A stretch of DNA of 64,000 nucleotides, from NCBI GenBank assembly GCA_903813345.2, contig CAIIXF020000011.1:18585754-18649753 (forward strand), given 5' to 3'. The notes below the pieces were generated by a model, which did no database searches, had not been told where the DNA came from, and was given only the letters and a program-made list of their open reading frames with translations. Positions 6,009 through 62,500 of the stretch are shown in pieces. The position numbers were made by a program, and so were the translations under genes. Numbering within the stretch: the first letter of the stretch is position 1; each line of letters begins with the position of its first letter. The DNA is from Owenia fusiformis. Lineage: Eukaryota > Annelida > Polychaeta > Sabellida > Oweniidae.

Positions 6009-9000
6009 TTAGTTGTCCATTCGTGCCTCTGAATATCTACTGTTTACATCCTCCCAATTGATAACATTAAAAATTGCTTTAACATAGTCCGGGCGCACAT
6101 TTTTGTACTGTAGATAGTAAGCATGTTCCCATACATCAATGCCTAACAATGGGACAAGTCCTGCAAGTAGAGAATAGACAGCTACATTATAATGCTACAA
6201 TCCCTGTGTTATATCTTGGTTATGGGGGGGGGGAGTGAAAGGTAGGGGGTTGTAAACTCATCATTGATTTCATAATAATATCCCTTGTATAGAAAACATA
6301 CATTTATTTCCCCAAAGAGTTTTACTGAGAACACAACACAAAAATGCATTGACGTTGCCTCAAGTATTATTAAGTACCCTCTGGAAACATTATGAATTGT
6401 TTTTGTTTCATATTGTTATTTTATACAAGCACATGTAAATAAAGGACCCACGGTCCTGTACTCACACAGTTTGGAACCTTCAGAGGAATGTATATCCTGA
6501 CTTTCAAACAAAAATATTGATTTGGATTTGTAGTCTCGAACTTTGAGAAACTTAGATAGCACAGTTGTGTGACCTAGTTTGATGACCTTTGACCTTGAAA
6601 ATTTTACTTATTCAGAGCTCAGTAAGGTCTTTTGTGATTAAGCTGACCAAAATTTACATCCAAAAATCAATTTGAAAAATCAACTTTTTTGACCTTTCGA
6701 AGGTCACTGAAGGTTAAGTAAAGGTCAAATCCTAAAACTAATGTCAGATTTGAACTCCTGGCAACTTGTAGATGATTTTAAAAAAAAATTTGGTCAAATT
6801 GAAGCAAGTTGAAAAATAACTTATTTTTACTGTTTTTTGACGTCAAATATCTCAAAAATGGTAAAAATTTGATGCTGACATATATTGAGCAATATGTAGG
6901 GAATGCTTAAATCTAGTTATGATGCAATTCATTGCAAGAAATGATCAAGTATAAGGAAAACTTTGAGAAACTTGTCAATCAGAAAACCTGCCATTGACTT
7001 TATATATGAGAAAGTTTCCTGAAAATGACTTAGTCCTACTTTTTGTCAAATTTTATAGAGTAAACACCAAAAACTGTAAATTCCCAGAGCTTTGAAATCT
7101 TCAGAGGACATAAGTTGCATATACAGCAACTACTACAAGTTATTTGAAAGTTCTACTTCAACAAATTGTCTAGTATTTACAGAAAATTTGACTTTTTGAC
7201 GTCAAAATCAGCAATTTCTCGGAAACCGGGCGAACTTGGGAAATGGCGATGATAATCAATAGGCATTATGGATATGCATAAAATGAATGTAAATATGACT
7301 CAATCCGAATAGCAGTTTTAATTTGTGAGGCCAATGTTGACGGACGGACGGACCAACGGACAGACGCCTGGTCGATCCCATAGGCTCACTGTGTGAGCCA
7401 AAAACTGAGAGACTCACATGACTCAGAGTCAATAAGACATATTAATTCATTAAAGGCACACCTGAAGGTTTAAGAAAAATTCAATTTTACATTTACATTG
7501 AGCCTTTAACGATAAGATCTGTCATCCAGAGATGCTTAAATATGTTAATCATATGCAGATCTCTAGATTTTTCTGGTGGAGCTTCAGTTTTTGAAAAACT
7601 GGTCAATATTTTCAGAAAATTATGGCTCCCTGTTAATTTCCAGATCCTTTTAATAAATGTACCTGTAGTTGCTTTTAATGGGTCCTGGTTAGCACATGTA
7701 GCTAATCTTAGCCTTCCAGATGTAGGATTATAGCCTAGCCATCCCCATCCTGACCCCTGGATTGCAACGGTCATCCCCGCCAGATCATTCTTCATCACTT
7801 CAACTGATCCAAAGTCTTTAATGATGGCCTCAAGTAAGTCTCCTGTAAATTAACACCATTTATTGGATTATTAGATGGCCTTGCATAAGTTGCATTGTGG
7901 CTCTGGCTCCTCAGCAATATGCTTGAAAGACAATGGATATGGGAGGAGACAACACAAAGGTTTCAATTGCAAAACATCCTGAGCAAGTTATAGCAACACA
8001 AGATAAACTTTATGGTTAAAATAAAAAATCCCAATTTTTTACATTTAAATTTAGACATTAAAGACGCTGAACACTGTCCACAAAAGGTTGGAGACTATTA
8101 CATTATGTCACCACCTGAATCGTAAACTGATACTCAACATCAATTGCAACATATATTATTTGATTTGGGACCGCTATAAATGAAATATGTAATATTTTTA
8201 TGACGGAAATTTTTTTTCTCGAAAAAGAGGCACAAGTAAAAGCCGAGGACAAATGGTGAAAATAACCAGTATATAGACCCCTATAAAATGGAGCATTAGT
8301 TAGACAACATCCATGTTTCATTTGCAAATCGGATGGACCGATGGATGAGTGGGCAATTCTATAGCCTCACCAAATTGATAACATGCACCTAATAAGTAAT
8401 AAAACAGTATTTAGGTCTAACCTTACCTGTTGGTTCACCTCCTCCATTGGGGGACATGTTCTCCCAGAATATGCTGTGATTCAAGTGTCCACCTCCATTG
8501 AACTTCACCGCAGGTCCTAGAGCAATAGCCCCACTGACATCACCTACACAGAAACATAGAGGTTAACATATTATACAAACTGTACATACTGCAGGTCCTA
8601 GAGCAATAGCCCCACTGACATCACCAACACAAAAACATAGAGGTTAACATATTATACAAACTGTACATACTGCAGGTCCTAGAGCAAAGGCCCCACTGAC
8701 ATCACCTACACAGAAACATAGGGGTTAACATATCATACAAACTGTACATACTGTAGGTCCTAGAGCAATAGCCCCACTGACATCACCTACACAGAAACAT
8801 AGAGGTTAACATATTATACAAACTGTACATACTGCAGGTCCTAGAGCGATAGCCCCACTGACATCACCTACACAGAAACATAGAGGTTACTAGTAACATA
8901 TTATACAAACTGTACATACTGCAGGTCCTAGAGCAATAGCCCCACTGACATCACCTACACAGAAACATAGAGGTTAACATATTATACAAACTGTACATAC

Positions 9001-12000
9001 TGCAGGTCCTAGAGCAATAGCCCCACTGACATCACCTACACAGAAACATAGAGGTTAACATATCATACAAACTGTACATACTGCAGGTCCTAGAGCAATA
9101 GCCCCACTGACATCACCTACACAGAAACATAGAGGATAACATATTATACAAACTGTACATACTGTAGGTCCTAGAGCAATAGCCCCACCGCAGACATCAC
9201 CTAAACAGAAATAAAAATGTAAAATGTACACACAGAGCAATAACCCTGGCACTGAACCCCTTTTTATATATATATATCTTTTATTGACTCTTTAGATGTC
9301 ATATCATGACATATTAGTCACTAAGGTAGAGCAGTTCTTCCCATTGTTGAACTGGTATCTTTATCCTGGCTAGAACCATAGACAATTCTAGCTAGCGCCA
9401 GTCTTTTATCGAGTTAGCAGCACTCTAGTAATCGCCGGTATAGGTCAGCAGTCATAGGTCAAAGACAAATCACAAGAAGTGCTGTGACCTGGGTTTGAAC
9501 CCAAGACCTCTACTTTTCAGCCTGAAGCCAAACTTCTTGCTTTTCAGACCAATGCTACATGTAATTAGTGTACAGAAAAATGATATTTTAAGTCAGCCCT
9601 CCAAATGAATGAACACATCACTTGTACAAATATATATATATATTATCTAACCTGTAGCTATTGCCTCTTTGAGCTTTTCCTCTGCCACATTCAGGTTATT
9701 GACATATGTCTGATGATGTTTGGAGTGGTGGAGTTTCATTATATCAGCAGAGATATATGGCTCCAAGGCATTGTAATCATAAGGCAGATCAGGAAGAGTA
9801 TGGTAAAGCCTGCTTGAAACACAACCTAGGATGTTCGGCTGTGCAAACCTAGAGGAATATAGGGAAAAAATAGTTCAATAAACAGCTAAAGAGACAAGTT
9901 TCAGAAATCACAATGCAGTTCTAGACTACGAGATTTTCCAACGATGATGAATTTACTATAGACCACTATAGCGCTTCACAGGGTGAACAACAACAGTTAA
10001 TAAAGGCATACCTGTATGTGCATGTACAGTTGAATTGTTATTTGGAATAATGAATGAGGAAACCCTTTGAGGGGCTCCCAAGGGGTATGTGATAAGGCGA
10101 CCTGGCCTCTAAAAATGTGACTAAATGGGACTTTGGGGTACTAAAAACGAACAAATGTGACAAACAGATGCTTGTAAGTGACAATTTTGTACATTAATAG
10201 GACTGACAAGTGTTTTGAGAGTGACAAAAATAGACAATTCATTCTGAATGTAAATTGACGCAAGTTAAGATGACTAATTCTAACCAGTAATTAAACAATT
10301 AAACATAACAGACTATTTAGTGCATTACATGCTAGTATGTATCTAACAGACTGACTAGAAGTCAGTCTGTTATGATGTACTACTTTCCTGTGGAAATTGC
10401 AGTGAATTTTTTTGCCCAAAATTATCAATTAGAGGAACCATTTCTTCGATAAAATAAACATTACAAAATTTCAATTAAATAGTAAGGTACAATTAAATGC
10501 AATACAAGAACACAAATGTGTACAAAATGTCCCCACCAATGGGTGATCCCATGAAATGGTTATCCTGAAAATGAGTAGACAAGACTTTACCAACACAATT
10601 TTAATTGATCCGTCACACAGTTAACTAGAAAACATGTAAACAAGACTTTACAGACAAGATTTTAGGATGGAAAATCCAAAATGGCTGCCTTGACATTTAC
10701 CCAGAATGTCAAAAAACTAATCTGTTCCTAGATTTTCATACTAAGAATCATCCCTGAAAATATGACATTGATCTACCAAATGGTTCACCTGAAAACGCGT
10801 AGACAAGACTTTACAGACAAGATTTTAGGACAGAAAATCCAAAATGGCTGCCATGACATTTACACAGAATGCCAAAAAACTAATCAGATGTAGATTTTCA
10901 CACTAAGAATCATCCCTGAAAATTTGAAATTGATCTACCAAACGGTTCACCTAAAAACGCGTAGACAAGACTTTACAGGCAAGATTTTAAGACGGAAAAT
11001 CCAAAATGGCTGCCTTGACATTTATCCAGAATGCCAAAAAACTAATCAGATCTAGATTTTCATACTAAGAATCATCCCTAAAAATTTGAAATTGATCTAC
11101 AGAACGGTTCACCTGGAAATGCATAGACAAGACTTTACAGACAAGATTTTAGGACAGAAAATCCAAAATGGCTGCCTTGACATTTGCCCAGAATGCCAAA
11201 AAACTAATCAGTTCTACATTTTCATACTATGAATCATCTCTGAAAATTTGAAATTGATCTACCAAACGGTTCACCTGAAAACGCGTAGACAAGACTTTAC
11301 AGACAAGATTTTAGGACGGAAAATCCAAAATGGCTGCCTTGACATTTACCCAGAATGCCAAAAAACAAATCAGATCTAGATTTTTATACTAAGAATCATC
11401 CCTGAAAATTTGAAATTGATCCACCAAACTGTTCACCTGAAAACACGTAGACAAGACTTCACAGACAAGATTTTAGGACGGAAAAATCCAAAAGGGCCAA
11501 CAATAAAAAAGTAATTATGTGATTTTGCTGATTTCTTCTTACAAAATTATCACATATTACTACTGTTAACAATAACATAGGCTTTTACAACAAAGTAGAT
11601 CTGAAATTATTTATAAAGCTACTAAATAGTTAAAGTATGAAAACTCAAAAACACCATTCAATATGATACAAAGTATTATCGTGCGCTAACTTTTCTTAAG
11701 ACATTCAAAATGGCTGACATGACTGAGCTAACAGGTCCAAAACCTAATCAGATCTAGAATGAAGTGAGCTGAACAAGATGTTAAAGTTTTAAAAGCAACT
11801 GTGAAGCCGTTTTTCTTAAAGTTTGCAGACAAGGATTTTAGCATTTGACTTCAAAATGGCCGACAGGAAGTAGGTATCGAGTTAAAATTTTTTCATCCAC
11901 ATCTGTATGCACTCATAAGTTATCCCTGAAAATTTGAAGGTGATATCTGTAGCGGTTTTGGAGAAAACTCCCGGACGTACGGACAGACGGACGGACGGAC

Positions 12001-14204: not shown

Positions 14205-17200
14205 ATGTCGGGGCCACCAAGAAGGGTGTCTCTAGGAAGAGAGGACCTCCACAGGCTCTCAAAAGAAGAGATTCTAGAAATGTAAAGATAATTAGGATTA
14301 TTTACAAACCTAGATAATGATATTTTACCTACTTCAGTTCTGCATATCAAAATTACAATATTGCCATTTGTCGAAAAATTTCAAAATATAAATGTACTCA
14401 CATTCGAGTCAGTACTAGTTCTTAGCTCGGTGATGTATAGAATGACAGTGTGTGTATAATGTATTTCTTCAAAAGTTCAAAATAAACTGAATATCAGGAT
14501 TTGATTTTCAATCTCTTATCTGAATATATTCTCATTACAGGTGGGAAAAGCAAGAAATATATTTGGACTTTTTAGAAACTAGAAACCCAGAAAAAGCCAG
14601 TAAGTATAATAGTTATATTATATGTTGCAAGTTATAAGTTATATTTGGGTTTGCTGAGAAAGAATCATTTTTGTTCCCAAAGTGTAGATTTACATAACAA
14701 ATACATCCCATTGATTAATAAAATAGAAAAAGATCACTTGATTATATAATTATCACTTTTTCAGATGAAAGTAAGATGATTGATGAATTCATGGCACTTA
14801 GAGATTCTGAGGAAAAGTTAAGGCAACAACAAATAGAAGCCACAAGGAGAGAAAATGTGCTAGTTATGCGCTTAACAACCAAAGAAAGGGAAATGCAGGA
14901 CTATGCTGTAAGGGAAATATATTTCTGGGAAACAAATATATTCTTAAACATATAATGTTTACATGATTTCCATATCTGAGCTATGGAACGATCGTTAATA
15001 TGCCAGGGATATTCATGTGGAGAGATTGCAAGATTTGAAAGACTGAAAATTATTTGTAGTCGATACACATTCAGCTATTGGAAATAATTGCAAAAAATTT
15101 GGAGGAAAACTCATCACTTCACGAGGATGAAATTGGACCATGTATTGTTTTTGCTCCTGGTGTTACTTATTTGCAAAATAAGATATATGGATACAGAAAA
15201 CAAAACCTCAAATGGATAATTGTATACAATGTATAGGGCAGTTGATTTAAAACACAATGTTTATTTTTCAGAACCAGTTATCAGAACTGACTAAAGCACA
15301 AAATACTAGCCCCTCCCAGTTACGGTCTATGCTACTGGATCCTGCCATTAACCTCATGTTCCAGAGAATGAAAAAAGAAATGGACAATAGTAGAGATAAA
15401 TTAGAACAAGCACAGAAAGATCTCGCGGCATGGAAGTTTACTCCAGACAGGTGTGTGTTAAAACTAGGCTTTAAATTTATTTGGAAAAGTTACATTATCA
15501 AGATAACTGTACAATAAGCCCAGTCTTAATCCCTCAATAATAGCTGAAATGATTTGGTTGGGGAAACAATGACTATGTAGTGTCAGAGAATTTCAATCGA
15601 GAATCATAGAGAGGTCAAAAAAATTTTAATTGAAATTGTGGCATTTCTATTTAAGCGGGATATAAAATCAAGTAGTCTAACAGCTCTATTCCTACACATA
15701 TTATATTATATTAAAAGAAGATTTACATTAGACTCACTTTAAATTTTATAATTATTTTTCTTTTCAGCCAAACAGGAAAGAGACTTATGGCACGTTGCCG
15801 CATGCTTCTTCAGGAAAATGAAGATTTGGGTAAAACAATAGCTTCGGGACGTATAGCGAAATTAGAAGGAGACATTGCGCTAGAAAAGACGCTCGTTTCT
15901 GAGCTGAAGAAAAGTCAAGCAGGTATAAGTACTAACCATTTGAAAATACAACAGGTTATAATCTAAATAAGCTTGCTTGAAAGTAAAGTAGAAGCTCGAA
16001 GCAAGCTTCATGGGGAAAATGTATCCTCATATGTGTCAAATGACGAGGAGATATCAAATGGTTGACCTGTTTGATTACCGGAAGCTTATTTTATGTTGAA
16101 TACAGAAATAGGCATATGAAGCTCCTTGTGGGCCTTCTTAGGAAAGCAGTGTATCTTATAAATATAATGGAGTTTAATGATAGGAATTGGCCTCTTAACT
16201 CCTTGTGCTCTTTCAAAGGAAAGCATGTATTGACTGAATACGGAAGATGAACTAGAATTTGTTCTAGCGTCAGGCTCCTTCTAACATGTTGTATTATACA
16301 TAAAGAATACTGCACTATATACAGCATGGTTGTGAATTTTGTGAGAGCAGAGTACCCAATGGGGTACTGTGATAGCAGGGTCTAGAGGATGCAGGGGTTT
16401 CACTAGAATTTCACACAAAAATAAATGAAAACAACAGGCAAAATTAATGGAACTCATAAATTTAACATGGAAAAGTTGAAAAGTCCCTAAAAACAACAGG
16501 CGATTTTTTGAAAACAACCAGTGAAAATTGCCTGTTGCCTGCTGCTAACGAAACCCCTGGGATGGAACTGGAAAACATGTAGAAATTACGTTAACCTAAC
16601 TGTGCTAGTTGCAAAAAAATATAAGTTTTAAAGGTTGTATATAATTATTGAAGTGTTTCTATTTCTTTTCAAAGCCTTAATACAGCATGTTGCTGTGTAT
16701 GATACTGAAGTTTACTTACATATTTGAAGTGGATACTCATCTTTTATTCCGTGTTAAGAAAACAGAAATTGATAACATTTTGACTGAGTGGGAGCTGTTA
16801 CAATGACCTCTACATTTAGCAATTTTCGGAAATGTTTCATCTAGTGAATTAATGATGGAACTATTAATTCAATTACAATAACATTGCCATTTTTGGGCTT
16901 ATTACTTGAAAGCATTATATGCTGTTATTATTATGTCACCACCAAAAAGTGGTGACATATTGTTATAGTCTCTGTTTTTTGTGACGGGTTGGTGTTTGGC
17001 GTCTGTAACAAATTCTTACAACGTTCAATAACTTAACAAAACTGTTAAGACTGACTCAGCTTGCTTCAAATTTTCCATTAGTTCTCAGAAGTTCAAATCT
17101 AATGAGATTTGACCTTATCAAGGTCAAAATGGTATTTTTTCAACTTCCTTCAAATTGACTAGAATTTTTTTCGTAATCAAAATTCTCAGAAATTCAAATC

Positions 17201-23200: not shown

Positions 23201-26200
23201 TCCTAAAATTTAACAAAATAGTAAAAGTCAGAATTGTCTGTTACTGCACCATCGACTTTGATACAGACCTTCTTTACACTGCGTTTAGAGTTGGGGGAGG
23301 AGCGTACCCATCAAGTCCCTCTTCAGAAAAGGAGCTCTGTATCAAAACATAATCTTGAGGGTGCATATCACTGGCTGTTATGAATGCAAATGAATTAGGG
23401 TATCTTTAGAATGAAACACTTAAAATCTAAAATGCTTGTAGATAACTTACATGTTTGATTGTATATTACTGTGTTATTAAAATGGTATTGTCTCAAACTT
23501 TGTCAGGTTAATATGAAACACTAGAGCTTATTCTGACTAAAAACAGGACTGTTCTCTTTTATCACAAAAAGTGAAAATTGCTACCTTTTTTATATTTATA
23601 TTCACTTTTATCATTGAGGAGTGAAGAAAGTTGTCAATATAAGTAACTGGGAAAAAATTTCCAGCTTTTTTATTCTCAGGCATTTTCCCAAAAATCTAAA
23701 ATCATGACTAAGTTTGGTCATTGTCATTCAAAATATTTGATTAATTATTATATTATTATTATTTGAAAATTTCAAGGATGATTCTCAGTTTTCAACTGTA
23801 TGGGAAATATTTGCATCCTTGTATATTCATCCTCCGATCACAGGGCTTCAAAATCAAGAATATCTTCTTTCTTTTTACACCCTGCTATAAGCAGTTAATA
23901 TCCCCGATTAAGAACTCGCAATTTGATTTGCTGTCGCAACACTGCGACGGCAATCATGTATACGTCATCGGTGCATAATTGTATCACGTGACTCAGTTTA
24001 AGCGGACGCTTCCAAATTGGTTATAGCAGGGGGGAAGGAGGCATGGATTCTGTACACCTGCTTTGGAGGATGTGTATATTCCAATTGTGAAATTAGTAGA
24101 CATCCAATTACTCAAGGGGCGAGGAGGAAAATTCTCAATAAATGGTGTATAGTTGGTTTGGCAGTATTTTCAGTTAGGGGAGAGTCTTGGATGAAATTTC
24201 CACCTAGGTGATAGCTTTACAGAGTGGTAGGAAGTTCTTTTTTTTGAGGAGTTAGCCCCCCACCCCCCCAAAACACCCCACCCTGGATAAAAAATTGTTC
24301 ACACTAAATAACCTTAGATATTTTGATGTTTGTAAGTGACATACATAGATATTATATATATGAATAATTTGCAGTATTAATGATCCTGATTACTCGTAAA
24401 GAATTTGAATATCAGTACAAAGTGTGTACCCCAGGGGGCAAATTCGTGACTCATTTTCTTACTGTTTTGATTCTAACTTTTCAATTAGACACTGTAAGAG
24501 GTTGAAAAAATTCATGTGAAGTGCCCAATAGCAGGGTTAGTAAACCTGAAAGATGCAAAGCCATGGAAGAAGTAGGAGCTGAGAAAAAAATTGTTGATTT
24601 TTCGAAAAATTTGACATTTTTGACAACTGGATTTTGTGTATGACTATAGCTGACCCCTATAGTTTCTAGATCCATCCCTCTATGATGATATTTATGGTTT
24701 TATAGTGTGGAACTAAGATGTAAAACATAATTTAGATGGGTTTTAAGGAAGTTAAAGGTTTTAAACAAGTCCTAAATTTGAAAAATTGTAAATATAAGGT
24801 TTCCAATTTACGAATTCCAGGTATAGCCATGGCTGACCCCTATAGTTTCTAGATCCATCCATCTTTGATGATATTTATGTTTTCATAGTGTGAAACTAAG
24901 ATGTAAAACATAAATTAGATGGGTTTTAAGGAAGTTATAGGTTTTAAACAAGTCCAAAATTTGAAAAAGTGTAAATGCAAGGTTTCAAATTTACGAATTC
25001 CAGCTATAGCCATGGCTGACCCCTATAGTTTCTAGATCCATCCCTCTTTGATGATATTTATTGTTTTGTAGTATGTAACTAAAGATGTAAAACATAATTT
25101 AGATGGGTGTTAAGGAAGTTAATGATTTAAAACAAGTTCAAAATTTGAAAAATTGTAAATAAAAGGTTTCAAATTTACGAATTTTAGGTATAGCCATGGA
25201 TGACCCTTATGGCTTTTTCATCAATACTTCTATGATGAAACATATACTTTTAGAGTGTGAAACTAAGATGTAAAACATACCGAAGATGAATTTTAAGGAA
25301 GTTGAAGAATTTTAACAAGTGCAATATTTGAAAAATTGAGAAATATCAGGTCTCAAAGGAGCACGGAAAGTATCGCAACAGATTTCAGACAGTCATATGT
25401 TGGATTTTGTCTGTTTTCTGAGGATTTAAGCAGGTGCATATGATAGGCCATTGCATTACCTATGGGAAAAGAACTCTTAGAGATGATAAAATACTTTGGA
25501 ATTTGAGACAGCGAAGGTGAAAACAATCCACCCACATGTTTTTTGGGAAATGTCGTCCTGATTTTCAACCCCGTTCACCCCTGGTTTTTCAATTTTTGTT
25601 GCATCAATATGTTGCGTTTTGAGACATAGTCAACCATTAAAAGGATAAATTTCTTTTAGATAAAGCGGAAAACAATATTTTCCTGTTATTTTCCCATAGG
25701 GAAAACTCATGTGATCCATTGCTTTCAGCTTAATTTTGGTCACCCATATTTGATATCTTTAAAATCCCTGATGGAACGTATTTTTCATTTAAAGGGGTTA
25801 CCTGTATGTAAAAACACATATATTTATACATATACACATATATATTTATGCATGTGGGTGGGTTGTTTGCACCCTCCCTGTCTCAAAATAGAAATTATTT
25901 TATCATCTCTATGGGTGCTTTTCCTGGAGGAAATGCATTGGCCTAACATATGCACCTCCTCAAATCCTCAGAAAATAGCCAAAATCCAACATATGATTGC
26001 TGAAATCTGTTGCGATACTTTCAGTCGTCCTTTACGATTTCAGGTATAGCCCTGGATGTCCCTCTTTTTGAATGTATGACTTAGCTTAGAAATTAGATGT
26101 TGAAAATATTGTGGTCAGGTTTGATCCATGTTACATGTACAAGTATTGTTAAAAGAAAAATCATTAGAGTTGAGGACTTAACCCTTGAGTTCCTAAGGGG

Positions 26201-29200
26201 GTGAGAGGTTAATAAATCCCCCAGTAAGTGTAACTGCTCCTAGGGATATCGTATACAGTGTAGTAATTGATTGATTAAATGGATTATAACTAATTAATTA
26301 TTATTTGATGATATTTATTATGTGATATAGCATTTTTACTTTTTCACATCAACATGTTCGATGTAATGTTCTGCATTATCAAAATACATAAAGACATGGT
26401 TAATTAAAAGAAACATGTTATCTCTATATTTTGTTATGCCCCTTCTGTAATTAAGCAATGATCATCTCCTAATACAATATGTTGTTATGAATTATCAAAT
26501 TATAATCACTACACTCCCAATAAAACAATTTGTCATCAGGCAACAGTAATTATTTGGGAAAATAGGGATTATAAGGATCATACCCCTCCCCCCGGGCCTA
26601 GAAACTTCCGTTAGTGCAATGATATAAGGAACTCTAGGGTAAAAGGGTCTTGTCACATTAAAATCTTCATGTAGATCAAAAAAGTATATATGGTGATATG
26701 ATCAATATGTTTCAAACAAACAGACATTGTAGAAAATGTTTACATACTGACTTTGCAGATGACATTTTCTAGCACAGTTGAAGATTTTTTTCCTTTATTG
26801 AAATGATAGTCATAAAATTATAATATCAGTGTCATTTGATGCAAATTACTGCAGTCCCACATGTTCTGCTGAATGTAAAACAGAGTGAATAATTTTAAAA
26901 TCAACCTATTCAGGAGTGGAATTTAACAGGAGATTTCAGTTATCATTTTCACAGATATTTGAGTTCTCTCCAATAGTTCCACTTAAAACAATCTTGACAT
27001 CTGGCACACTTTTAGAATGCTGCTTTATTGAATTTCTTTGTAATCTTTGAAAATTTGTCTTATATTAGTTGGACAAAGGTATTCATATTTTTAGGTAATG
27101 GTGTAATTTCTTCTATGGATTAAAGTTCAATAGGGGAAGCATCCATTCTTCGCATTCTTTCAGAATCCTTTACTGATGGAGACAACTAGCTAGGAGTCTA
27201 ATATGAAATCTATTCTTTGGGCTCCTTTACTAGATTTGATGGAGTAGTCAAATATAGCTTTCCAAAACTCTCCAAATTTCAACATATAAGTTAATCTTCA
27301 TTTTCCCTTTGTCATAGCCATTGCATCAATCATGAAAGTGTTATCAATTTGTGGTATGGTTTCATCGATCTCCATTTCAAACCCCTTTCTAAGTTCTGAT
27401 TTTACAGGATAAGATAGATGATCATTGTCAAACGAACTGTTTGTATCCATATAAGATCATAGTTTACTCACACATTTCTAGGCAAGGTGTGTCCAATTCC
27501 AGCCAATTCAATATTCCATATAACTGCATTCCAATTTACTACTCTCATAAACCCAAGGTCAATTTTAGATTCTAGAGAAACTAATGAAACTAATGATCAT
27601 AGGGAATAGCATGCCAAGTGCTTGTATTTGAATTTATGTGAATTACTCATTTGGTAGACACCTTTATCAAATGTTAAAGTGTTGTTGATTTTCAAGTTGC
27701 ACAAGCACAGTGTCATAGGTGCTTTCTTTTCCTGACATAGTATAACATTGTGGTAAAAATTATCAAAGGCACCTAGTACAGTAGTTCTAGTTCATCATCT
27801 TGTATAAATGATATATCAGCAGTGAAACCTGTATATCCCAACATCTGACTATTGTGAACACCTACCAATCATCCCAACACCTGACTTATCTGAAAACCAA
27901 CCAATCTGAACACTTTTCCCCAGTTCAATTTTTCCTTCCTCCCATTGACTCCTATGTTTAAAAATTGAAATCTGAACACCTCTTAATTCGAACAGTCAAC
28001 ACTCATATTTGAAAAATCAACCTGTTTAACTTGAACTTTTTTTTACCAAATATCACATATTTCTTACAAAATTGCTCAAATATTGTCAGTTTAACACTGA
28101 ATTGTTATGATATCAAAACTTTTGAATTGGATTTTGTAATGCTATTAAGCTTTTTGGGTGGTCAGTATAAATATTATTAATATTTATTAATATTTTTCAT
28201 TGAGAATGCATTCATATTTCTTCAAAATCCAGAATATTGCAGATGTAAAAACCTCAAAATTCAAACACTTCTAATTTGAACGCTTTTAGCTGGTCCAAAT
28301 ACTATATCTAGTAGCATTCAGATTAGAAAGATTTTACTGTAGTTCATGACTTTTCACTCCATCTATATGCAGCAGACTAACTGCTGCAACAGGTATATAT
28401 TCTACACCTGGTCTCTAAGCTATGATATCACAGTTGTTACTATTATGTTCATAACCTTCGATTATCAGGGCTCATTCAAGGCTGTACCTGAATAACGTGA
28501 ATTTGAGACCAATTTTCGAGATCAATTTTTCAAATTTTGCACTTGTTTAAAACCTTGAACTTCCTTCAAACTCATCTTATGCATCTTTTACATTTTAGTT
28601 AAATACTCATATATATATCTCATCACTGAGGTATATCTATTCCATAAGGGTCATCTTTGGCTATACCTGAAATTCATGAATTTGAAAACTTACATTTTAC
28701 AATTCTTCAAATTTTTGACTTGTTTAAAACCTTAAACTTTCTTAAAATTCATTTTGGGTATGTTAAATCTTACTCCCACACTCTAAAACTGTATATTTAA
28801 TCATAGAGGTATGGATGTAAAAACCATAAGGGTCAGCCATGGCTATACCTGAAATTTGTAAATTTGAAACCTTATATTTACAATTTTTCAAATTTTGAAC
28901 TTGTTTAAAACCTTAAACTTCCTTAAAACCCATCTAAATTGTGTTTTACATATTAGTTCCATACAGCAATACCATAAGTATCACCATAGAGGGATGGATC
29001 TAGAAACTATAGGGGTCTGCCATGGCTCTACCTGGAATTCGTAAATTTGAAACCTTATATTTACAACTTTTCAAATTTTGGACTTGTTTAAAACCTTAAA
29101 CTTCCTTAAAACCCATCTTAATTATGTTTTACATCTTAGTTCCACACTATTAAACCATATATATCATCATAGAGGGATGGATCCAGGAACTATAGGGGTC

Positions 29201-31150
29201 AGCTATAGTCATACACAAAATCCAGCTGTCAAAAATGTCAAATTTTTCAAAAAATCAACAATTTTTTTCTCAGCTCCTACCTCTTCCACGGCTTTGCATC
29301 TTTCAGGGTTACTAACCCTGCTATTGGGCACTTCACATGAATTTTTCCAACCTCTTACAGTGTCTAGTTGAAAAGTTAGGATCAAAATAGTAAGGAAATG
29401 GGTGACGAATTTGCCCCCTGGGGTACACACTTTGTACTAATATTCAATTTTTTTAGGAGTAATCAGCATCAATTATACTGCAAATGATTCATATATATAA
29501 TATCTATGTATGTCACTTACAAACATCAAAATATCTAAGGTTATTTAGTGTGAACAATTTTTTTCCCCGGGGTGGGGTGTTTTTGTGGGGTAGGGGGCTA
29601 ACTCTTCAAAAAAAAGAACTTCCTACCACTCTGTGAAGCTATCACCTAGGTGGAAATTTCATACAAGACTCTCCCCTAACTGAAAATGCTGCCAAACCAA
29701 CTATACTCCATTTATTGAGAATTTCCCTCCTCGCCCCTAGAGTAAATGGAATGAAGTAGCATAACAATAAAACTGCTCTGAATACTAGGACCATCCAAAA
29801 GTGCTCAGATTTCCCAGTTCAAGGCTTTTTAACTTGATAATCTGTGTCATATTAAGAAATGGACCCAAAAAAAGCGTTCATATTGAGACGTGTTCAGTTT
29901 AGAGATGTGTTTGAATATACAGGTTTTACTTTACATTTTACATTTTTAATTTGAAGATGCATATTCAACAAATATGTGACATTTATTCTGCACCAGGCCT
30001 TGAAAGAAATGCATCTTGAAAGAAATACAGTTTTGTTTACAACATTCTAAGTATTTTGATCAAAAAGAAGTTTTAGTTATACATATCCATGAACTTTCAA
30101 GCTACAAGGGTCGTTCGAAAAGTTTTGCATGAGAAGAGATTTTATTATTTTTACATGAAATTTCTTACGGATATACAAGTATCACCTGTCTTACATTCAT
30201 ATCTGAAATTTCAAGACCATTCACAATGCACTTCTTGAGATATATTGACTTTAAAATGTGAACATTCAGTGTTCTTATCCGTTCTTATTGGTGCAGCGTT
30301 TCCAAAGAGTGTCCAGTCTGAAAGTGTCGGGGACATTTCGAAGCAAGCCAAATATGTTAGAGAATTTTGAAATAGCTGAAATGAGTACTAGTAAATCATT
30401 GCAATTGAAGTTTATTGAGCAAAAGTAAATATATATGCATTAAACTAGGCTATGGTAGAATTGCATCCTTCTGCAATGTTTGGGTGGTTTGGACAGCTCA
30501 GATACTATTTTTTCTGTAATGTGCAGTGTATTTATGTTATGCTTTGTGTGTTTCCAGAGACTGATGAATTTCTGGTTGAACTTGACGAAGACGTTGAAGG
30601 CATGCAGAGTACTATCTACTTCCTACAACAACAACTTAAAGACACTAAAGACAGAATTGTTGCCTTAGAGGCTGAAAACGTGAACCTTAGGCAACAACAA
30701 CAGCAGCAATCTTTGGGGACCACGGGGAGCACACATCAGCCCCGCCCTACGAACGTTTCACCGACACCTACAGCCCCATCCCCTGTTTCTATGGGGACTT
30801 CAGATTCACGGACTCCAATGCTAACTGACCCATCCCCTAGGTCTGCCTCTCCTATGTTGGCACGGACAGCTAATGGCATGCCTGTCGTCGTAAAACAAGA
30901 ACTGATGGAAACCGACGAGTTTCAAGATGAGTTGCCATCTGAGAACAACCAGGTAAAAAATCATATGACCCGAGATTTGACGATGAGGGATTCCACCTCG
31001 TGGAGCCCAAATAAGACCATATTAGGCAATGGTAAGGAACAAAGTACGTTGTCGTCAAATAATGAGACAAGAACAGAACAGACTACGGTGACTAACGGGC
31101 CTACTAACGGTCTGGATTCACAAATTGATCATGATATGCAGGGAGACTAA
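14205..31150 (+). CDS. WTAP: WTAP, regulatory subunit of the m6A methyltransferase complex (six coding exons)
   Basis: WTAP is the nuclear coiled-coil adaptor that recruits METTL3-METTL14 to pre-mRNA and affects splicing. Coding exons are 14205-14281, 14541-14599, 14765-14907, 15272-15450, 15768-15922 and 30558-31150, giving 1206 nt and 401 aa; human is 396 aa. Recognisable family blocks are SEEKLRQQQIEATRRENVLV, LRSMLLDPAINLMFQRMK, KLEQAQKDLAAWKFTPD, TGKRLMARCRMLLQENEDLG and VELDEDVEGMQSTIYFLQQQ. Residues ~40-240 are heptad-like coiled coil; the tail is Gln, Ser, Thr and Pro rich and disordered. The ATG follows an acceptor at 14182, implying a 5' UTR exon. The last intron, 14.6 kb, is packed with inverted-repeat elements. 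The final exon ends at a TAA with AATAAA at 31265. Confidence 0.96.
16930..17400 (+). repeat. Dispersed hairpin-ended repeat, copy 3, with extended body
   Basis: Starts with a hairpin, tgtcaccaccaaaaagtgg (then tgaca), followed by 'attgttatagtctc' and 'ggttggtgtttggcgtctg'. The body holds 'tgaccttcaatgacc' and 'aaggtcaaa' words shared with the element at 6450-7400. It is non-coding and lies in the large WTAP intron. Confidence 0.6.
17541..18080. mobile_element. 540 bp fold-back element with 5 bp target duplication
   Basis: Arms of about 260 bp are near-perfect inverted copies around a ~40 bp centre near 17810. The ends read CACTGCTACCCACCTAATTA and, inverted, CACTGCTACACACCTAATTA. The flanks are direct repeats, agtgt at 17536-17540 and 18081-18085. 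Each arm carries ATGGCGGAACTTCCTCCGG, which resembles the 5' end of a coding exon. No transposase. Confidence 0.88.
18587..22836. mobile_element. 4.2 kb element with about 0.53 kb inverted arms
   Basis: The left arm (about 18587-19120) and right arm (about 22300-22836) are inverted copies at high but imperfect identity. Shared words include atagacaggttccaatt, tttttgaggcattttttaga, gtggtcacgacactg and ccaggggtagggcactata. The interior has no long open frame but contains a second inverted repeat (20670-21282). It lies wholly inside the WTAP intron. The type is unknown. Confidence 0.8.
20670..21282. mobile_element. Inner inverted-repeat element nested in the 4.2 kb element
   Basis: 'aaaggaatattccttgc' at 20672 is mirrored by 'gcaaggaatattccttt' near 21262. 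Both arms (~210 bp) share 'gatggcagct/agctgccatc', 'ggaagtgatgtcatc' and 'tgagagttgatgac' words in inverted orientation. Its centre (~20976) is about 270 bp off the centre of the outer repeat, so it is a separate insertion rather than part of one palindrome. Confidence 0.75.
23038..23170 (+). repeat. Dispersed hairpin-ended short repeat, copy 4
   Basis: Begins with the hairpin atcaccaccacaagtggtga, then 'ggttggtgtttggtgttgg', and ends 'ggtggtgacattttgcatg' plus 'ttaatgccttg'. This is the most complete plus-oriented copy. Confidence 0.65.
24640..25350 (+). repeat. Tandem ~178 bp repeats in the left arm of the 5.6 kb element
   Basis: About four copies share 'gctgacccctatagtttcta', 'gatgtaaaacataattta' and 'caggtatagccatgg'. 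The same unit, inverted, makes up 28450-29215. Confidence 0.85.
25356..26032. mobile_element. Inverted-repeat element inserted in a 178 bp repeat unit
   Basis: 'gaaagtatcgcaacagattt' near 25364 is mirrored by 'aaatctgttgcgatactttc' near 26003. Arms of about 190 bp surround a centre containing an ACATAT-rich stretch near 25820. The broken 178 bp unit resumes at 'ttacgatttcaggtatagcc', so the insertion postdates the array. Confidence 0.75.
27823..28346. mobile_element. Tc1/mariner-pogo-like miniature element
   Basis: The left end is CAGTGAAACCTGTATA and the right end, inverted, is CTACAGTAAAATCTTTC. The interior repeats 'aacacctgac', 'tctgaacac' and 'ttcaaacacttc'. CAGTRAAACCT-type ends are typical of pogo/Tigger elements. 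It has no transposase. A related end occurs near 29885-29935. Confidence 0.5.
28450..29215 (-). repeat. Tandem ~178 bp repeats in the right arm of the 5.6 kb element
   Basis: About four inverted copies of the unit seen at 24640-25350, with 'gccatggctatacctgaaa' and 'cttgtttaaaaccttaaact' recurring. Identity between copies is high but not exact. Confidence 0.85.
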
Positions 31151-34254: not shown

Positions 34255-37200
34255 TCAACATGGTTGCACTGGCATTGTGATGGACAACACCTGAAAAGAT
34301 AAAGTAATGTTCCATGACCCCCAGCTTTCAAACCAATTTGAATTACTGCATGTTTATTGTTGACTGCAACTGAATTGACTCCATGCAATTTAACCTCTAT
34401 AACCTCTAAGAGAGCCAAATGTGGTCCTGCAAATCTTTGAGAGCGTTGATCCTCTCATTCTCTTAAAATCAACTGGGAACCACTAACCTTAGTTTTTCTA
34501 TTAAATTGAGCAACAGCATCTTCCTGTATGATGTCGTAAGGTAAATAGATATCAAGGCCGTATATCAGGGACCGAGTCTGTAGCACAATGCGGTCTTCAC
34601 CAATGTCAAGTGTCAAAGTGGCAGCTGTTTTCTGAAATACATCCAAATACAGGGTGTCTATAAAAGTCTCTTCATAATTACAATACAAGGCATTAACATG
34701 CCAAATGTCACTACCTGCCATTTGTTACAGACACCAGCCACTGAATGCAAGACACCAACTGTTGAATGCCAAACACTGTCCACAAAAAGAATTGGAAACT
34801 ATAACAAGTGGTGACATAACAAAGTTTGAGTAAAGTGTAGAGACTTTATGGACAAAGTCTGAGTAAAGTGTAGAGACTGGACGTCTAAGTGTAGAGACTT
34901 TATGGACAAAGTCTAATTGTAGAGACTTTATGGAAAAAGTCTAAGTGTAGAGACTTTATGGACAAAGTCTAAGTGTAGAGACTTTATGGACAAAGTAAAG
35001 TGTAGAGACTTTATGGACAAAGTCTGAGTAAAGTGTAGAGACTTAATGGACAAAGTCTGAGTAAAGTGTAGAGACTTAATGGACAAAGTCTAAGTAAAGT
35101 GTAGAGACTTCATGGACAAAGTCTAAGTGTAGAGACTTTATGGACAAAGTCTAAGTGTAGAGACTTTATGGACAAAGTCTAAGTGTAGAGACTTTATGGA
35201 CAAAGTCTAAGTAAAATGTAGAGACTTTTAACAAAGTCTAAGTGTAGAGACTTCATGGACAAAGTCTAAGTGTAGAGACTTTATGGACAAAGTCTAAGTG
35301 TAGAGACTTTATGGACAAAGTCTAAGTAAAGTGTAGAGACTTTATGGACATGCTGTATAATTATCTGGGACACCCGAGATCAGATACTTAGTTGGATCAA
35401 TACGTTTTCCAAGATTTTAAGAAGTAAAACCTAAATAGCCAATTTATCTTTAAATGTATAATTGTCTGAATATGTACTGAAATGTGATACAACCTCGGAA
35501 AATCTTGTTTTTACTTCTACATATACATACAGTGTTAAATGATGAATCCCCTTATAATACTGTACGCCCGGTATTATTTGCGAGATTTAATTTCGCGAAT
35601 TTTGCGAAAACACGATTTCGCGGCTATTAAATTTCGTGAATTTCACAAGTTTGAAATTCATTACTACTGTATCCCAGGAATTCTCGAGCTACTTGTGTGT
35701 AAATTAAGTTAGATGTACAGTAATTGCACTTACCTGATGTCATATTTGGATGAGATTTACAATAACTGGGATCTTTATCATCGGCAAGCTGCATATCAAC
35801 CTCTATTGCATCGTCATTTTTAATATTAAAGCAAAAGTGCGTGGCTCCCATAATAACTTTACCGTACTTCATACTGTATTTTATCGTATTCGGGGATTCC
35901 CCAGTATATGATGTCCAATCAAATTGCAGGCTACGATCACGTGAACAATCGTGCGCACGTGCTCTTTCATTTTCAACGAAATGCATCAGAGCCCCGGGTA
36001 AAAACAAATTCCCGGGGATTTAATTGGCAATTTCGCGACAATAATTTTTCGCGATTTTAACACCCTGGCGAAAAGCGCGAAAGTAAATCGCACGCGAATA
36101 ATACCGGGCGTACAGTATGCTTCCAATGTTATTGGTATCACAGTATTTTATCTGCAAAAAAGATTGCCATTGATGATTGGAAGCATGATAGACTTACAAG
36201 TTTTGGAAGATGCATATCAGCAACAAGGTATTCTGGGTGGCCTTCTGGGGGTTCCTTTAGTATTGTATATGCTGGTTCTTCTGCCCTGGAACACACAAAG
36301 GGATTATACACTGAGTATTCAATCAATCCTGAAGTAAATGAAACTTCACTAAGTAGAGGTTTTGAGTAACTCAGCTATTTAGCATACTTCGTTCTCCACA
36401 TCAAGTTGAACAAACATGTATCATTGAATATCATCTGATTTTGAAATGATACAGACACGCATATTTTTAAAAATGTGATATTCTGAAAAAGCTTATATCT
36501 CAAAAGTCCCAAGCCAATGGTGTGTGAGGTAGCAATATACATTTGTCTGAAATTGATGACAGATAGACAGCTTGGGTGGAATATCAGTAATTCCACAGGT
36601 TCACCCATGGAGGGTTGCCTCCCAGAATGCAATCTCATTATTTCCAACAATGAAAATATTGTTATTGTCCTGACATTAAACTGGCTGTAAATTCATAATC
36701 AGCAATCCTAAAGAATTGTGCTAATATCTTGATCACGTCTTGTGCGCTTATTCTAGTTTTGAAATTTTTTCTTATGTAATAAGGCCAAAACTTGGGATTC
36801 AAAATCTAAGTGAAAAATGGGCGACTTTTTGAATTTCGAAATCACTACATCATTAAGAATGGGCTTCTTATTTAAGGGTTTGTTTAATACCTGCAGGGCT
36901 CAGTATGTGTACCTAATGAAATGAAATAATATCTAGATTGCATTCTGGTAGGCAATTCTCATTGAGGCTCACCATTGCAGCCATAGAGGCATCAATCTTA
37001 CATAATGGCTGTCCACTTTATTCATCCCATGATTCCTTGCCTCCGTACCAACATCATTTTCTTTTAAAAAACATGACCATGTAAAATTTCATTACTTTGT
37101 TTGACTTGATTAATGGCAGGTCGGGTTACATTTGTAATATTTATGGAGACAGTAACTTGGAAACAACAAACCTTTCAAAAACACCACAGCCAAGTGGTAA

Positions 37201-59500: not shown

Positions 59501-62500
59501 ATGATGTCTCTACTTGTATCCATTTCTTTTAAATTACTGGAGTCATTTTTTTTATTTATGTTATGCTTTTGAGGGACTACTAAGTGGGTTCAGTGGTTTC
59601 AGTGTTTCCTATGAAACACTCCCAATATTCCATTGGTGGTCCATAATGCCATTTTTGACCACCTGCTCTCAGAACCTTACCTCAACCTACCCTTTGCATT
59701 CGTTTGACTTCACTTCTTAAAAGAGAGCTTCATCTTCACTCTTTCAAACTAAAATAAACCTGTGATCTTACCACGGCAATCAGTGTTCGTCGGCCAAATT
59801 TGACCGACATTCTATATATGGTCATTCCTTCTGACGTCATCGTTGAGCCCAGAATTGACCAATGACATGCGCATATTTAATTAGAACGCATTTGGCGTAT
59901 GTTTCTTCAAGCTCGCTGAGTGGTGGAAGAATGGTCAGCGCATAGGTCAAAAGTGATTTATTACCCAAACTGTCACTGGTACCCGCCGTGGGGGCGGGGC
60001 TACTAAACTGTAATATGGTCTCTACTAGGCAGAGTGTAGTTTAACTAGACTCTGCATGCTGGGTAACCTCAACCCCTGATCATGGGTGATTCTGATTGGC
60101 CAATGTACTTCCATGTAATCTTGAAAATAACAGTTCAGACTTCCCTCAAATCTTAAATTGATAAAAGACATACATGTATAGTTGCTGTTTGTATTGAAGT
60201 ATTTATATTTTTTAAACTCCAAAACTTTGGTGAATACATATAAGTGAAATCTGTAATTAATGGCCTGCCTCTAGATCTATCAAAATAAGAATAGGTAAAA
60301 TGTACTTCTCCAACTGTAATGTTTTCATAACAGCCTGCTTTTTAAATATAACATTTTTTAGATCCAAGCAAGGCCCAAAGGTTAGCACACCCGGGACTGG
60401 GATGTCCTCCACTCATTCTAAGAAAGGATCTGTACTTCTGTACTTCTCCGACTGTAATTTTTCATAACAACCTGCTTTTTAAATGTAACATTTTTTTTAG
60501 ATCCAAGCAAGGCCCAAAGGTTAGCACACCCGGGACTGGGATGTCCTCCACTCATTCTAAGAAAGGATCTGTGGCTGGGGATCACTCTGGGCATGGTGTT
60601 TCCATCGCTGATGAAGACATCATTCTGCATCACATGGACTCCTTCTGCGGCAGGATCCGCCAGATCATGGATGTTGTCAACACCCTATCTCAATACACCA
60701 GGTACATAATACCTTTTTTTAGTACATAGGTACATGATATTTTTTATTTCATTAATGTCAATTTTTCTGTACAAACACCTCAGTGGTCCAAGGGATGTAT
60801 TAACATTTTACAAATATGAAACAAAAAATGAATGTCGTAAATATGAGGGTTGTCCCAGAAGTATTGCTCTATATGCTCAAACTTTCTTTAATATTGTTCA
60901 ATTTAGCTGAAATTAGTGCATTACTTCTGGGACAACCCTCGTATATTATAATATCTTTTCAGAGTAATCAAAAGCACAAATGGACTCCCCAGGCCAAGAA
61001 AGGAAGACCTTATATATGATGAAGCTTTAGATTTCACCCGTGAGAAGAAGATCATAGAGGAACCACCTGAAATGGATGATGGTACGTCATCATAAAAGAC
61101 TAATATAGCATGATCCTTCAATCGTCCCCATATAAAGCCTTGTCATTTAAATTATTGTATATTTGATGAACTATGAATTTTACGTATTTAAAAGAGAGAA
61201 TAGTGTCAAGGAATGGCCAACAATTTAACAGCTTGTTTTTCAATGCATGGTTTCCTTGTGTTGCCTCTCAGATTTTTTGATTTAATAATTTTATACGTCT
61301 AAATCTGAATTGAATTTATAATTTTTTGCTCATTTTAGATCTTCCACTGCCATCTATTGGGCCACGCCCCTCTGACCGAGAGACCAGTAACCTTGTGCCA
61401 ATCACAGAAGATGAGGAACTAAGGGTGGCAGCTCTACCTGGTGAGGAAGACATGGAAGCAGACGGCAAGTCAGACACAATGTCTGCAGCAGATGAGCCTC
61501 CAGACTTATTTGGTTCACAGCAGGGTCTGACCCGGGAGGAAGTTGCCATACTTAGTAAGTTTATAGTCAGTCTTGAATAAGAAGTCAAAATATAAGATAA
61601 ATAAGTAGAACTTGCTATTTGGATATTGTGCTGATATGCAAATTGTGGAATATTTTCTGTATTACAGTATATCATACTGACTAAATCAATTACTCACAAG
61701 GCTTTGTTTTTAGAATGATCCAGTTTAAAAACCCTCTTCAACTAAACATTAAAACAACTTGATTTCTGTTTATATGCGTATGTTGTATTTCAATTTCTGC
61801 AGTATTTGATTCAAATACTATCTCCCAGATACAGTTTCAATTGTTCTAAATACTATAACGTGAATAAAGTCCAAAGTATTCAAAAAGCTCGAACATATAT
61901 GACGTGTTATTTGTCTGTTTAGAAAAATACTACGATGAAGACAATCCTGGAGAAGGGCCGAGTGTGGCTGAGATTATAAAGGAGTCTTTACAAAACATGC
62001 GTGGCTCAATGGCGGAAAATGTCACCACTAAGACTATGATGGATGTGGAAACAAAAGTATGTAACCCTTTACACATTAATTGTGTGTTCTGTTGCTAGGT
62101 TATGTGATGTCACAATAACGCAAGCAATGTCAGGACAAAAGTTTCTATATATTGAATAGTCATTGAATAAGGCCATTTTAAATTAATTATATGTTTAATG
62201 TTCTGTTGAGGTGTAGAACCTTCTAGGAGAATTTAAGGTAAAAAACAAACAAAAAATTTACCTAGATCCCATTTTATAGGGGTGTATACCTGTACATGTA
62301 TATCTTTCACAATGTATATTCCATGATTGAGTGTTTTTATTGTAAAAAGTTAATGTGTATTTCAGGACCGTGAAAGATACGAGGAAACATATACCAACTT
62401 CTTGATGCTTGTTCAAGATCTTGAGAAGTTTCTTGCGTCATACCTGCACGCCATTTTTACCCGTAAAATGAAAACATCTGAGGCCTTGGAGCTCATTACA

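What the first reader, a model, noticed from the sequence alone, without database searches (positions are those of the whole stretch)
8511..9212. Nine-fold tandem array of a SOD2 splice acceptor
Eight extra copies of the acceptor plus the first ~35 exon nucleotides lie upstream of the true third coding exon at an 81 bp period. Each has polypyrimidine, AG and a following GTATGT, so each could act as a decoy acceptor or a 35 nt micro-exon. A 35 nt insertion would shift the frame, so inclusion of one or two copies should break the protein unless splicing always picks the last acceptor. This is a natural test of acceptor choice.
Basis: partly seen in the sequence, partly recalled or inferred. Interest (0 to 1): 0.8.

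Follow-up and report, generated by a model that had tools for sequence, protein, structure and literature searches.

The report
Repeated splice acceptor upstream of SOD2
In the genome of what is probably a marine worm, the start of one exon of the antioxidant gene SOD2, together with the splice signal before it, has been copied eight extra times in a row; this looks like a kind of minisatellite described in lancelets, and normal protein should be made only if splicing ignores the copies.

Summary
The array is real. On the minus strand, the 3' end of an intron plus the first 35 nt of an MnSOD (SOD2) coding exon occurs nine times (8510-9211, mostly 81 bp); the copy at 8543 is the real exon start. 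All eight keep GTATGT. Every combination of included 35/38-nt micro-exons, 255 of 255, gives a premature stop, because one copy shifts the frame into a TAG in the next. Use of any extra acceptor with read-through also gives a stop. The structure fits published 'mirage' minisatellites of lancelets (tandem duplications of exon-intron boundaries). This genome does not look like a lancelet's: 12 chromosome-scale contigs and haemoglobin-linker matches suggest an annelid, perhaps Owenia fusiformis. Two more exons, one dynein-like and one myosin, show one such duplication each: 3 of 60 exons tested. Best reading: a neutral, homogenised minisatellite that captured an acceptor, tolerated because exon definition (strong GTAAGG donor, complete exon) favours the last acceptor. 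No RNA data were available, so splice choice is inferred. A new member of a known kind, apparently in a new animal group.

The parts
8510..9211 (-). tandem array: 46-nt intron-3'-end segment + 35-nt exon-start segment, nine exon-start copies
   Evidence: TRF; copy table
8427..8543 (-). true SOD2 exon 3 (117 nt), copy 9 of the array at its 5' end; donor CAG|GTAAGG
9163..9200 (-). extra copy 1: 38-nt exon-like piece with its own diverged acceptor (ttctgtttag), then GTATGT
9082..9116 (-). extra copy 2: 35 nt, AG intact, branch-point-like TTAAC changed to TTATC
9001..9035 (-). extra copy 3: 35 nt, AG intact
8920..8954 (-). extra copy 4: 35 nt, AG intact; unit identical to the true copy 9 except the last exon-part base
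8833..8867 (-). extra copy 5: 35 nt, AG intact, 6-nt insertion in the branch-point-like stretch
8752..8786 (-). extra copy 6: 35 nt, AG intact
8671..8705 (-). extra copy 7: 35 nt, AG intact
8590..8624 (-). extra copy 8: 35 nt, acceptor AG mutated to TG (TTG)
9652..9848 (-). SOD2 exon 2 (197 nt), donor CAG|GTTAGA
7663..7842 (-). SOD2 exon 4 (180 nt), donor CAG|GTACAT
6009..6160 (-). SOD2 exon 5 with stop codon (152 nt)
60301..60572 (+). second boundary duplication in the same window: acceptor plus exon start of a dynein-heavy-chain-like exon (60501-60701), duplicated once, 139 bp apart (exon starts 60362 and 60501)
   Evidence: identity of the exon weak on its own

Best explanation
It is a minisatellite whose unit happens to include an intron-exon boundary: the end of SOD2 intron 2 and the first 35 nt of exon 3 were duplicated in tandem and then expanded and homogenised by unequal exchange or slippage, as in lancelet 'mirage' minisatellites. 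The extra copies are intronic. The spliceosome joins exon 2 to the last acceptor (8543), because only that copy is followed by a complete exon and a strong donor; most decoys carry the same acceptor but a weak GCA/ACA|GTATGT donor and are separated by only 46-52 nt of would-be intron. Stray decoy use gives an early stop and probably decay of the mRNA, so it costs expression rather than making a new protein. Shown here: array, gene, frame consequences, weak decoy donors (recalled generic matrix), equal drift of exon-like and intron-like parts, similar duplications at two other exons. Inferred: origin by duplication and expansion, actual splice choice, mRNA decay.
For: Nine in-register copies of acceptor + exon start. 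Copies 2-9 are 87-99% identical while edge copy 1 is 70-75% identical to them, the edge pattern described for a lancelet globin mirage. Changes relative to copy 4 in copies 2-8: 4 of 245 exon-part and 7 of 322 intron-part positions, Fisher p = 0.76, so no sign that the exon-like pieces are kept as coding. Inclusion of any set of the 35/38-nt pieces gives a stop: 255 of 255, sets with the AG-less copy 8 included. Donor scores (recalled human-like frequencies): decoys 3.5-4.4, the three located real donors 11.6, 6.3, 5.9. The three located SOD2 introns are 1108, 584 and 1502 nt. In a biochemical study of duplicated globin 3' sites, the upstream one with 14, 55 or 205 nt of exon, splicing was inefficient and only to the distal, that is downstream, site. 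Same kind of duplication at one dynein-like exon and one myosin-head exon: 3 of 60 exons tested. Tandem arrays of period 20 or more and TRF score 100 or more cover 11,171 of 90,000 bases in nine arbitrary stretches of this genome, so mutational supply is ample. Lancelet mirages in Adh3, TnC and globins are reported not to disturb regular splicing; for PGBD5 its authors infer the same.
Against: No transcripts were examined. Classical work, as cited in PMC9225289, found the upstream of two competing 3' sites chosen, and that paper's transcriptome analysis finds an upstream preference, significantly reduced under exon definition; both would favour decoys. Copy 1's acceptor scores higher than the true one (10.65 versus 8.06). 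The decoy donors, though weaker than the real ones, still rank at the 88th-92nd percentile of GTs on this strand. Similarity of the flank upstream of copy 1 to the unit's intron part is not beyond chance (264 of 2000 shuffles as good), so how the first duplication arose is not shown.
Confidence: 0.8

Rival explanations
1. The array is a functional poison cassette: decoy acceptors are used at a measurable rate, each use gives an early stop and nonsense-mediated decay, and copy number sets SOD2 output.
For: Every micro-exon inclusion (255 of 255) and every extra acceptor with read-through (8 of 8, the AG-less copy 8 included) gives an early stop. Six extra copies have the same acceptor score as the true site and copy 1 a higher one. 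In a biochemical study duplicated 3' splice sites were spliced less efficiently. In human ABCA7 a VNTR that includes a donor gives a one-unit retention with frame shift.
Against: Exon-like and intron-like parts drift alike (4/245 versus 7/322); the copy nearest the true exon has lost its AG, and copies 2 and 5 lack the branch-point-like motif. Lancelet mirages in Adh3, TnC and globins are reported not to disturb splicing.
Confidence: 0.12
2. Coding micro-exons: an alternative donor 4 nt further (TAT|GTACAG) makes 39/42-nt in-frame pieces that insert 13-14 residues per copy into MnSOD.
For: With that donor 255 of 255 combinations stay in frame. Copy 1's length change is +3.
Against: That donor scores -0.5, below the out-of-frame GTATGT 4 nt upstream (3.5-4.4) and the three located real donors; no coding constraint seen on the copies; the would-be introns would be about 42 nt.
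Confidence: 0.02
3. Assembly artefact: a single copy falsely expanded.
For: None found; reads were not available.
Against: Units 2-9 are 8 distinct sequences of 8, or 7 of 8 if the junction base that separates copy 4 from copy 9 is ignored; the array is short (702 bp) inside a 37.3-Mb contig; the whole-genome search shows no other copy.
Confidence: 0.02
4. An early stage of intron or exon gain: one repeat is on its way to become a new exon, as proposed for lancelet globins.
For: Such a model is published for lancelet mirages; the decoys have GTATGT and, in 7 of 8, an acceptor AG.
Against: At present inclusion through GTATGT breaks the frame.
Confidence: 0.04

Closest known systems
Lancelet 'mirage' minisatellites (Adh3, TnC, globins BflGb6/BflGb9, PGBD5); PMC3087553 section 16 and PMC3902484 section 17 read, the rest of both not
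   Same: Minisatellite-like tandem duplication spanning an intron-exon boundary; BflGb6 duplicates the 3' end of an intron plus the 5' part of an exon; many copies keep AG/GT signals; central copies homogenised, edge copies not.
   Different: Different gene (SOD2) and, by genome marks, a different phylum; 8 extra copies here against 6 and 3 repeat units in the two BflGb6 haplotypes; splicing and length variation untested here.
Human ABCA7 intron-18 VNTR (PMC5954066, passages seen)
   Same: Tandem repeat whose unit includes a real splice site; retention of one unit shifts the frame.
   Different: It contains the donor, not the acceptor; 25-bp unit, about 12 to 427 repeats.
Human IFI6 (6-16) minisatellite with multiple splice donors (Turri et al. 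1995; only citations and one sentence in PMC4526556 seen; paper not held)
   Same: Minisatellite copies act as alternative splice sites.
   Different: Donors, and said to be used in real isoforms.
Intron gain by tandem duplication of AG/GY proto-splice sites (PMC2891723, passages; PMC4974935, listing only)
   Same: Tandem duplication creates extra splice signals.
   Different: There the duplicated stretch is exonic and becomes an intron; here an existing boundary is copied and no new in-frame intron results by way of GTATGT.

Membership tests
mirage minisatellite | tandem repeat unit spans an intron-exon boundary | tested here: met
   46 nt intron end + 35 nt exon start in each regular unit
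mirage minisatellite | true exon is the end copy, the others lie in the intron | tested here: met
   copy 9 continues into the MnSOD exon; the eight others lie between exons 2 and 3
mirage minisatellite | minisatellite-sized unit (reported 10-160 bp) | tested here: met
   81 bp; published sizes
mirage minisatellite | homogenised centre, diverged edge | tested here: met
   copies 2-9 87-99% identical, copy 1 70-75% to them
mirage minisatellite | length variation between haplotypes | not testable with these tools
   one assembly; no second copy of the locus seen
mirage minisatellite | regular splicing undisturbed | not testable with these tools
   no RNA data
mutually exclusive exon array | each copy is a complete exon that keeps the frame | tested here: not met
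   copies up to GTATGT are 35/38 nt, not multiples of 3, against a 117-nt exon
intron gain by proto-splice-site duplication | duplicated exonic AG/GY yields a new intron with coding frame kept | tested here: not met
   unit carries an existing intron end; 255 of 255 inclusions through GTATGT give stops

The most novel reading that the evidence does not exclude
The decoy array works as a copy-number rheostat for SOD2: it loads extra U2AF/U2 onto intron 2 and diverts a tunable share of transcripts into decay, so individuals with different copy numbers make different amounts of mitochondrial MnSOD; and boundary minisatellites of this kind are a common, overlooked feature of this annelid-like genome.
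Probability: 0.1. Interest if true: 0.7.

Novelty: new member of a known kind. Interest (0 to 1): 0.42.

Why it matters
It would extend an obscure class of boundary-duplicating minisatellite, which the papers I found describe in lancelets, to a probable annelid and to one of only two Fe/Mn-SOD loci found in its genome. Eight decoys, most with the same acceptor but a different downstream context from the true site, make acceptor choice (proximity, exon definition, donor strength) readable from ordinary RNA-seq. The 3-of-60 rate suggests a genome where boundary duplication, a proposed raw material for new introns and exons, can be studied in bulk.

Tried and rejected
Paralogue comparison: the second Fe/Mn-SOD locus (C7; pieces 27-44% identical) is too distant to serve as an array-free outgroup. 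ADH3, where lancelets have mirages, shows no tandem array at its 7 exon hits here; one 30-nt similarity 57 bp away in the intron before one exon was not counted. A COX1 search to place the species gave no match. Flank homology of copy 1 to the unit intron was not significant. Core splice elements are hit by 3 of 11 changes in copies 2-8, p = 0.06, post hoc, so not claimed. A myosin locus (L030) flagged is an intronic minisatellite whose copies begin about 20 nt beyond the donor, not a boundary duplication, and was not counted; nor were the repeats inside the sulfotransferase exon. A PDB search with the dynein-like exon peptide gave nothing. Donor, acceptor and branch-point preferences are recalled human-like values, not trained on this species. 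Limits of the exon test: several DHC and WTAP exon limits are approximate; 5 of the 60 exons (four DHC, one WTAP) rest mainly on my reading of open frames (no Pfam match for the four; Wtap E 0.081 for the other); only near duplicates within 3 kb or 1.5 kb could be seen.

Literature: answered searches. Passages or sections were seen in PMC2572611, PMC4526556, PMC2891723, PMC5954066, PMC3087553, PMC9225289, PMC5389562, PMC7556508, PMC3902484 and PMC9977687; everything else is from listings. In some searches the entries on boundary minisatellites, judged by listing, were the two lancelet papers; absence elsewhere is not shown.
Full report
What is there. The gene lies on the minus strand. TRF reports an array at 8510-9211 with period 81 and 8.6 copies. 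Reading the minus strand, the string GTGATGTC that opens the exon occurs nine times, at 9200, 9116, 9035, 8954, 8867, 8786, 8705, 8624 and 8543; steps are 84, 81, 81, 87, 81, 81, 81, 81. Each regular unit is a 46-nt piece GTATGTACAG...TTAACCTCTATGTTTCTGTGTAG followed by a 35-nt piece that equals the start of a coding exon. The 8543 copy runs on into a full exon, 8427-8543. Exons 2 to 5 (9652-9848, 8427-8543, 7663-7842, 6009-6160) join into an open frame to a stop codon, and 83 of 84 residues spanning exons 2 and 3 align without a gap to solved MnSOD chains (1ja8 and others, E 6.8e-41; I recall these as human). I did not find exon 1. A search of the whole assembly matches the array nowhere else (40 of 337 candidates scored; the 39 other matches cover only the last 50 query bases). 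Sod_Fe_N and Sod_Fe_C searches find this gene and one distant Fe/Mn-SOD locus on C7.

The extra copy nearest the true exon (8624) has TTG where the acceptor needs TAG. So 7 of 8 extra copies have an AG. All 8 have GTATGT, but preceded by GCA or ACA, giving donor scores of 3.5-4.4 against 11.6, 6.3 and 5.9 for the gene's three located donors (the matrix is a recalled human-like one). The decoy donors are not negligible: they rank at the 88th-92nd percentile of GTs on this strand, the real ones at the 96th-99.9th. The 15 nt before the exon are the same as the true ones in copies 2-7 (score 8.06); copy 1 scores higher (10.65). The yTnAy motif with its A 20 nt before the exon is found in copies 1, 3, 4, 6, 7, 8 and 9 and not in 2 and 5 (motif recalled).

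What decoy use would do. I enumerated all 255 non-empty sets of the eight exon-like pieces (35 nt, or 38 in copy 1) put between exon 2 and exon 3, copy 8 included although its AG is gone: 255 of 255 end early. One included piece ends in phase 0, so the next copy, including exon 3 itself, is read in another frame and meets its CTC TAG. In the one case whose stop position was printed (copy 5 alone) the stop lies 273 nt before the last exon junction (nt 256 and 529, counted from exon 2), which by general knowledge marks an mRNA for decay. Using acceptors 1-8 without further splicing also gives a stop in 8 of 8 cases. Exon 3 itself is 117 nt, so skipping it keeps the frame. Against my reading, one path stays in frame: a donor 4 nt later (TAT|GTACAG) would make 39/42-nt pieces and 255 of 255 open frames, but it scores -0.5.

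How it most likely arose and works. Copies 2-9 are 87-99% identical; copy 1, at the outer edge, is 70-75% identical to the rest. Changes in copies 2-8 relative to copy 4 are spread evenly: 4 of 245 exon-part and 7 of 322 intron-part positions (p = 0.76). That is the picture of a homogenised minisatellite with no coding constraint visible on its exon-like parts. Three of the 11 changes fall in an AG or branch-point-like motif (p = 0.06, post hoc), too weak to claim selection against decoys. The flank of copy 1 is not detectably related to the unit's intron part (264 of 2000 shuffles as good), so the first duplication step is inferred. Splice choice is inferred too: exon-defined recognition (introns of 1108 and 584 nt on either side) with the strong exon-3 donor should favour the last acceptor. 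Published work cuts both ways. For: in one biochemical study, duplicated globin 3' sites, the upstream one followed by 14, 55 or 205 nt of exon, were spliced inefficiently and only to the distal, downstream site. Against: an older result cited in PMC9225289 found the upstream 3' site chosen, and that paper's own survey finds an upstream preference that is significantly reduced under exon definition.

Not alone. I tested 60 exons for a same-strand near-duplicate of the boundary nearby: 19 in the window, 4 at the C7 SOD and 7 at ADH3, and 30 myosin-head exons (the best 30 of 92 listed matches). Five of the 60 (four dynein-like, one WTAP) rest mainly on my reading of open frames. Three have the acceptor plus exon start duplicated: SOD2 exon 3; a dynein-heavy-chain-like exon at 60501-60701, duplicated once 139 bp upstream; and a myosin-head exon in L045 with one decayed copy 94 bp upstream, 79% identical over 102 nt. 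The dynein assignment of that exon is weak alone (DHC_N1 E 0.029; 0.0043 on a joined peptide), but it lies in profile order between better DHC_N1 matches (27-79, 79-138, then 210-238, then 323-366), and the first exon of the run matches a dynein gamma chain (E 2.5e-7). SOD2 was the finding itself, so the independent rate is 2 of 59. Other flagged similarities (L030, one ADH3 intron, repeats inside the sulfotransferase exon) were not boundary duplications and were dropped. Tandem arrays (period 20 or more, score 100 or more) are abundant: 14 merged arrays covering 11,171 of 90,000 bases in nine arbitrary 10-kb stretches, 6,113 of these bases in one stretch (L014) that is mostly a 145-bp satellite; 16 arrays covering 6,404 bases in the window.

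Which animal. Contigs C1-C12 are 31.9-62.2 Mb long and together hold about 477 of 498.3 Mb; C13 and C14 are 0.66 and 0.19 Mb (other contig lengths were not seen, but too little is left for another of that size). The erythrocruorin-linker family PF16915, which I recall as annelid-specific, has three matches over its cut-off in one cluster on C6. Owenia fusiformis is published at 505.8 Mb and 12 chromosome-scale scaffolds. So an annelid, perhaps this species, is likely; lancelets have about 19-20 chromosomes (recalled). This is an inference, not a test of identity.

What is known. [quoted passage not shown] for BflGb6 and Adh3 length variation is reported, for BflGb6 a homogenised centre with excluded edges, and for Adh3, TnC and globins undisturbed splicing. 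The SOD2 array meets the structural features and is filed there; splicing and length variation are untested. Human ABCA7 has a donor-side counterpart with splicing effects, and IFI6 another (citations only). Novelty is therefore modest: a new gene, apparently a new phylum, and signs that it recurs in the genome.

Noticed in passing
window 60301-60572 (+): A dynein-heavy-chain-like exon (60501-60701) has its acceptor and exon start duplicated once, 139 bp apart: a second boundary duplication in the same window.
   Followed up: yes
L045:1365-1560 (G000 C9, about 28.843 Mb): A myosin-head exon (start 1507) has a decayed copy of its acceptor and exon start 94 bp upstream (79% over 102 nt).
   Followed up: partly
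G000 C9:37986009-37994334 (-): Twelve matches to the same Myosin_head stretch (about positions 18-84) lie side by side within 8.3 kb; this looks like a long set of alternative exons of one myosin gene.
   Followed up: no
window 14722-15963 (+), perhaps to 31147: WTAP, a gene of the RNA m6A writer complex (function recalled), lies next to SOD2 on the opposite strand (Pfam Wtap E 1.9e-19 and 8.4e-20; the 30449-31147 part only E 0.081); I recall the same neighbours in human.
   Followed up: no
window 57907-58244: Seven copies of a 48-bp unit at 100% identity, open in several frames: it looks very young.
   Followed up: no
window 55876-56143 (+): 21/42-bp repeats inside a 593-codon open frame (55672-57450) with a galactose-3-O-sulfotransferase domain (E 1.3e-73), coding a repeated acidic stretch such as EDEVNIK.
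   Followed up: partly
window 10628-11497 and L018:4072-4938; window 34833-35350 and L019:8719-9195: Arrays with the same periods (162 and 28 bp) recur on other chromosomes; sequences were not compared, but they may be dispersed satellite families.
   Followed up: no
window 24649-25357 and 28523-29203: Two 183-bp-period arrays about 3.2 kb apart whose units look like reverse complements of each other.
   Followed up: no
window 9163-9200: Copy 1 differs from the others by TGCGG for AG; the resulting CTGCGGTG also occurs in the true exon across the end of its shared 35 nt, as if copied by templated repair.
   Followed up: no
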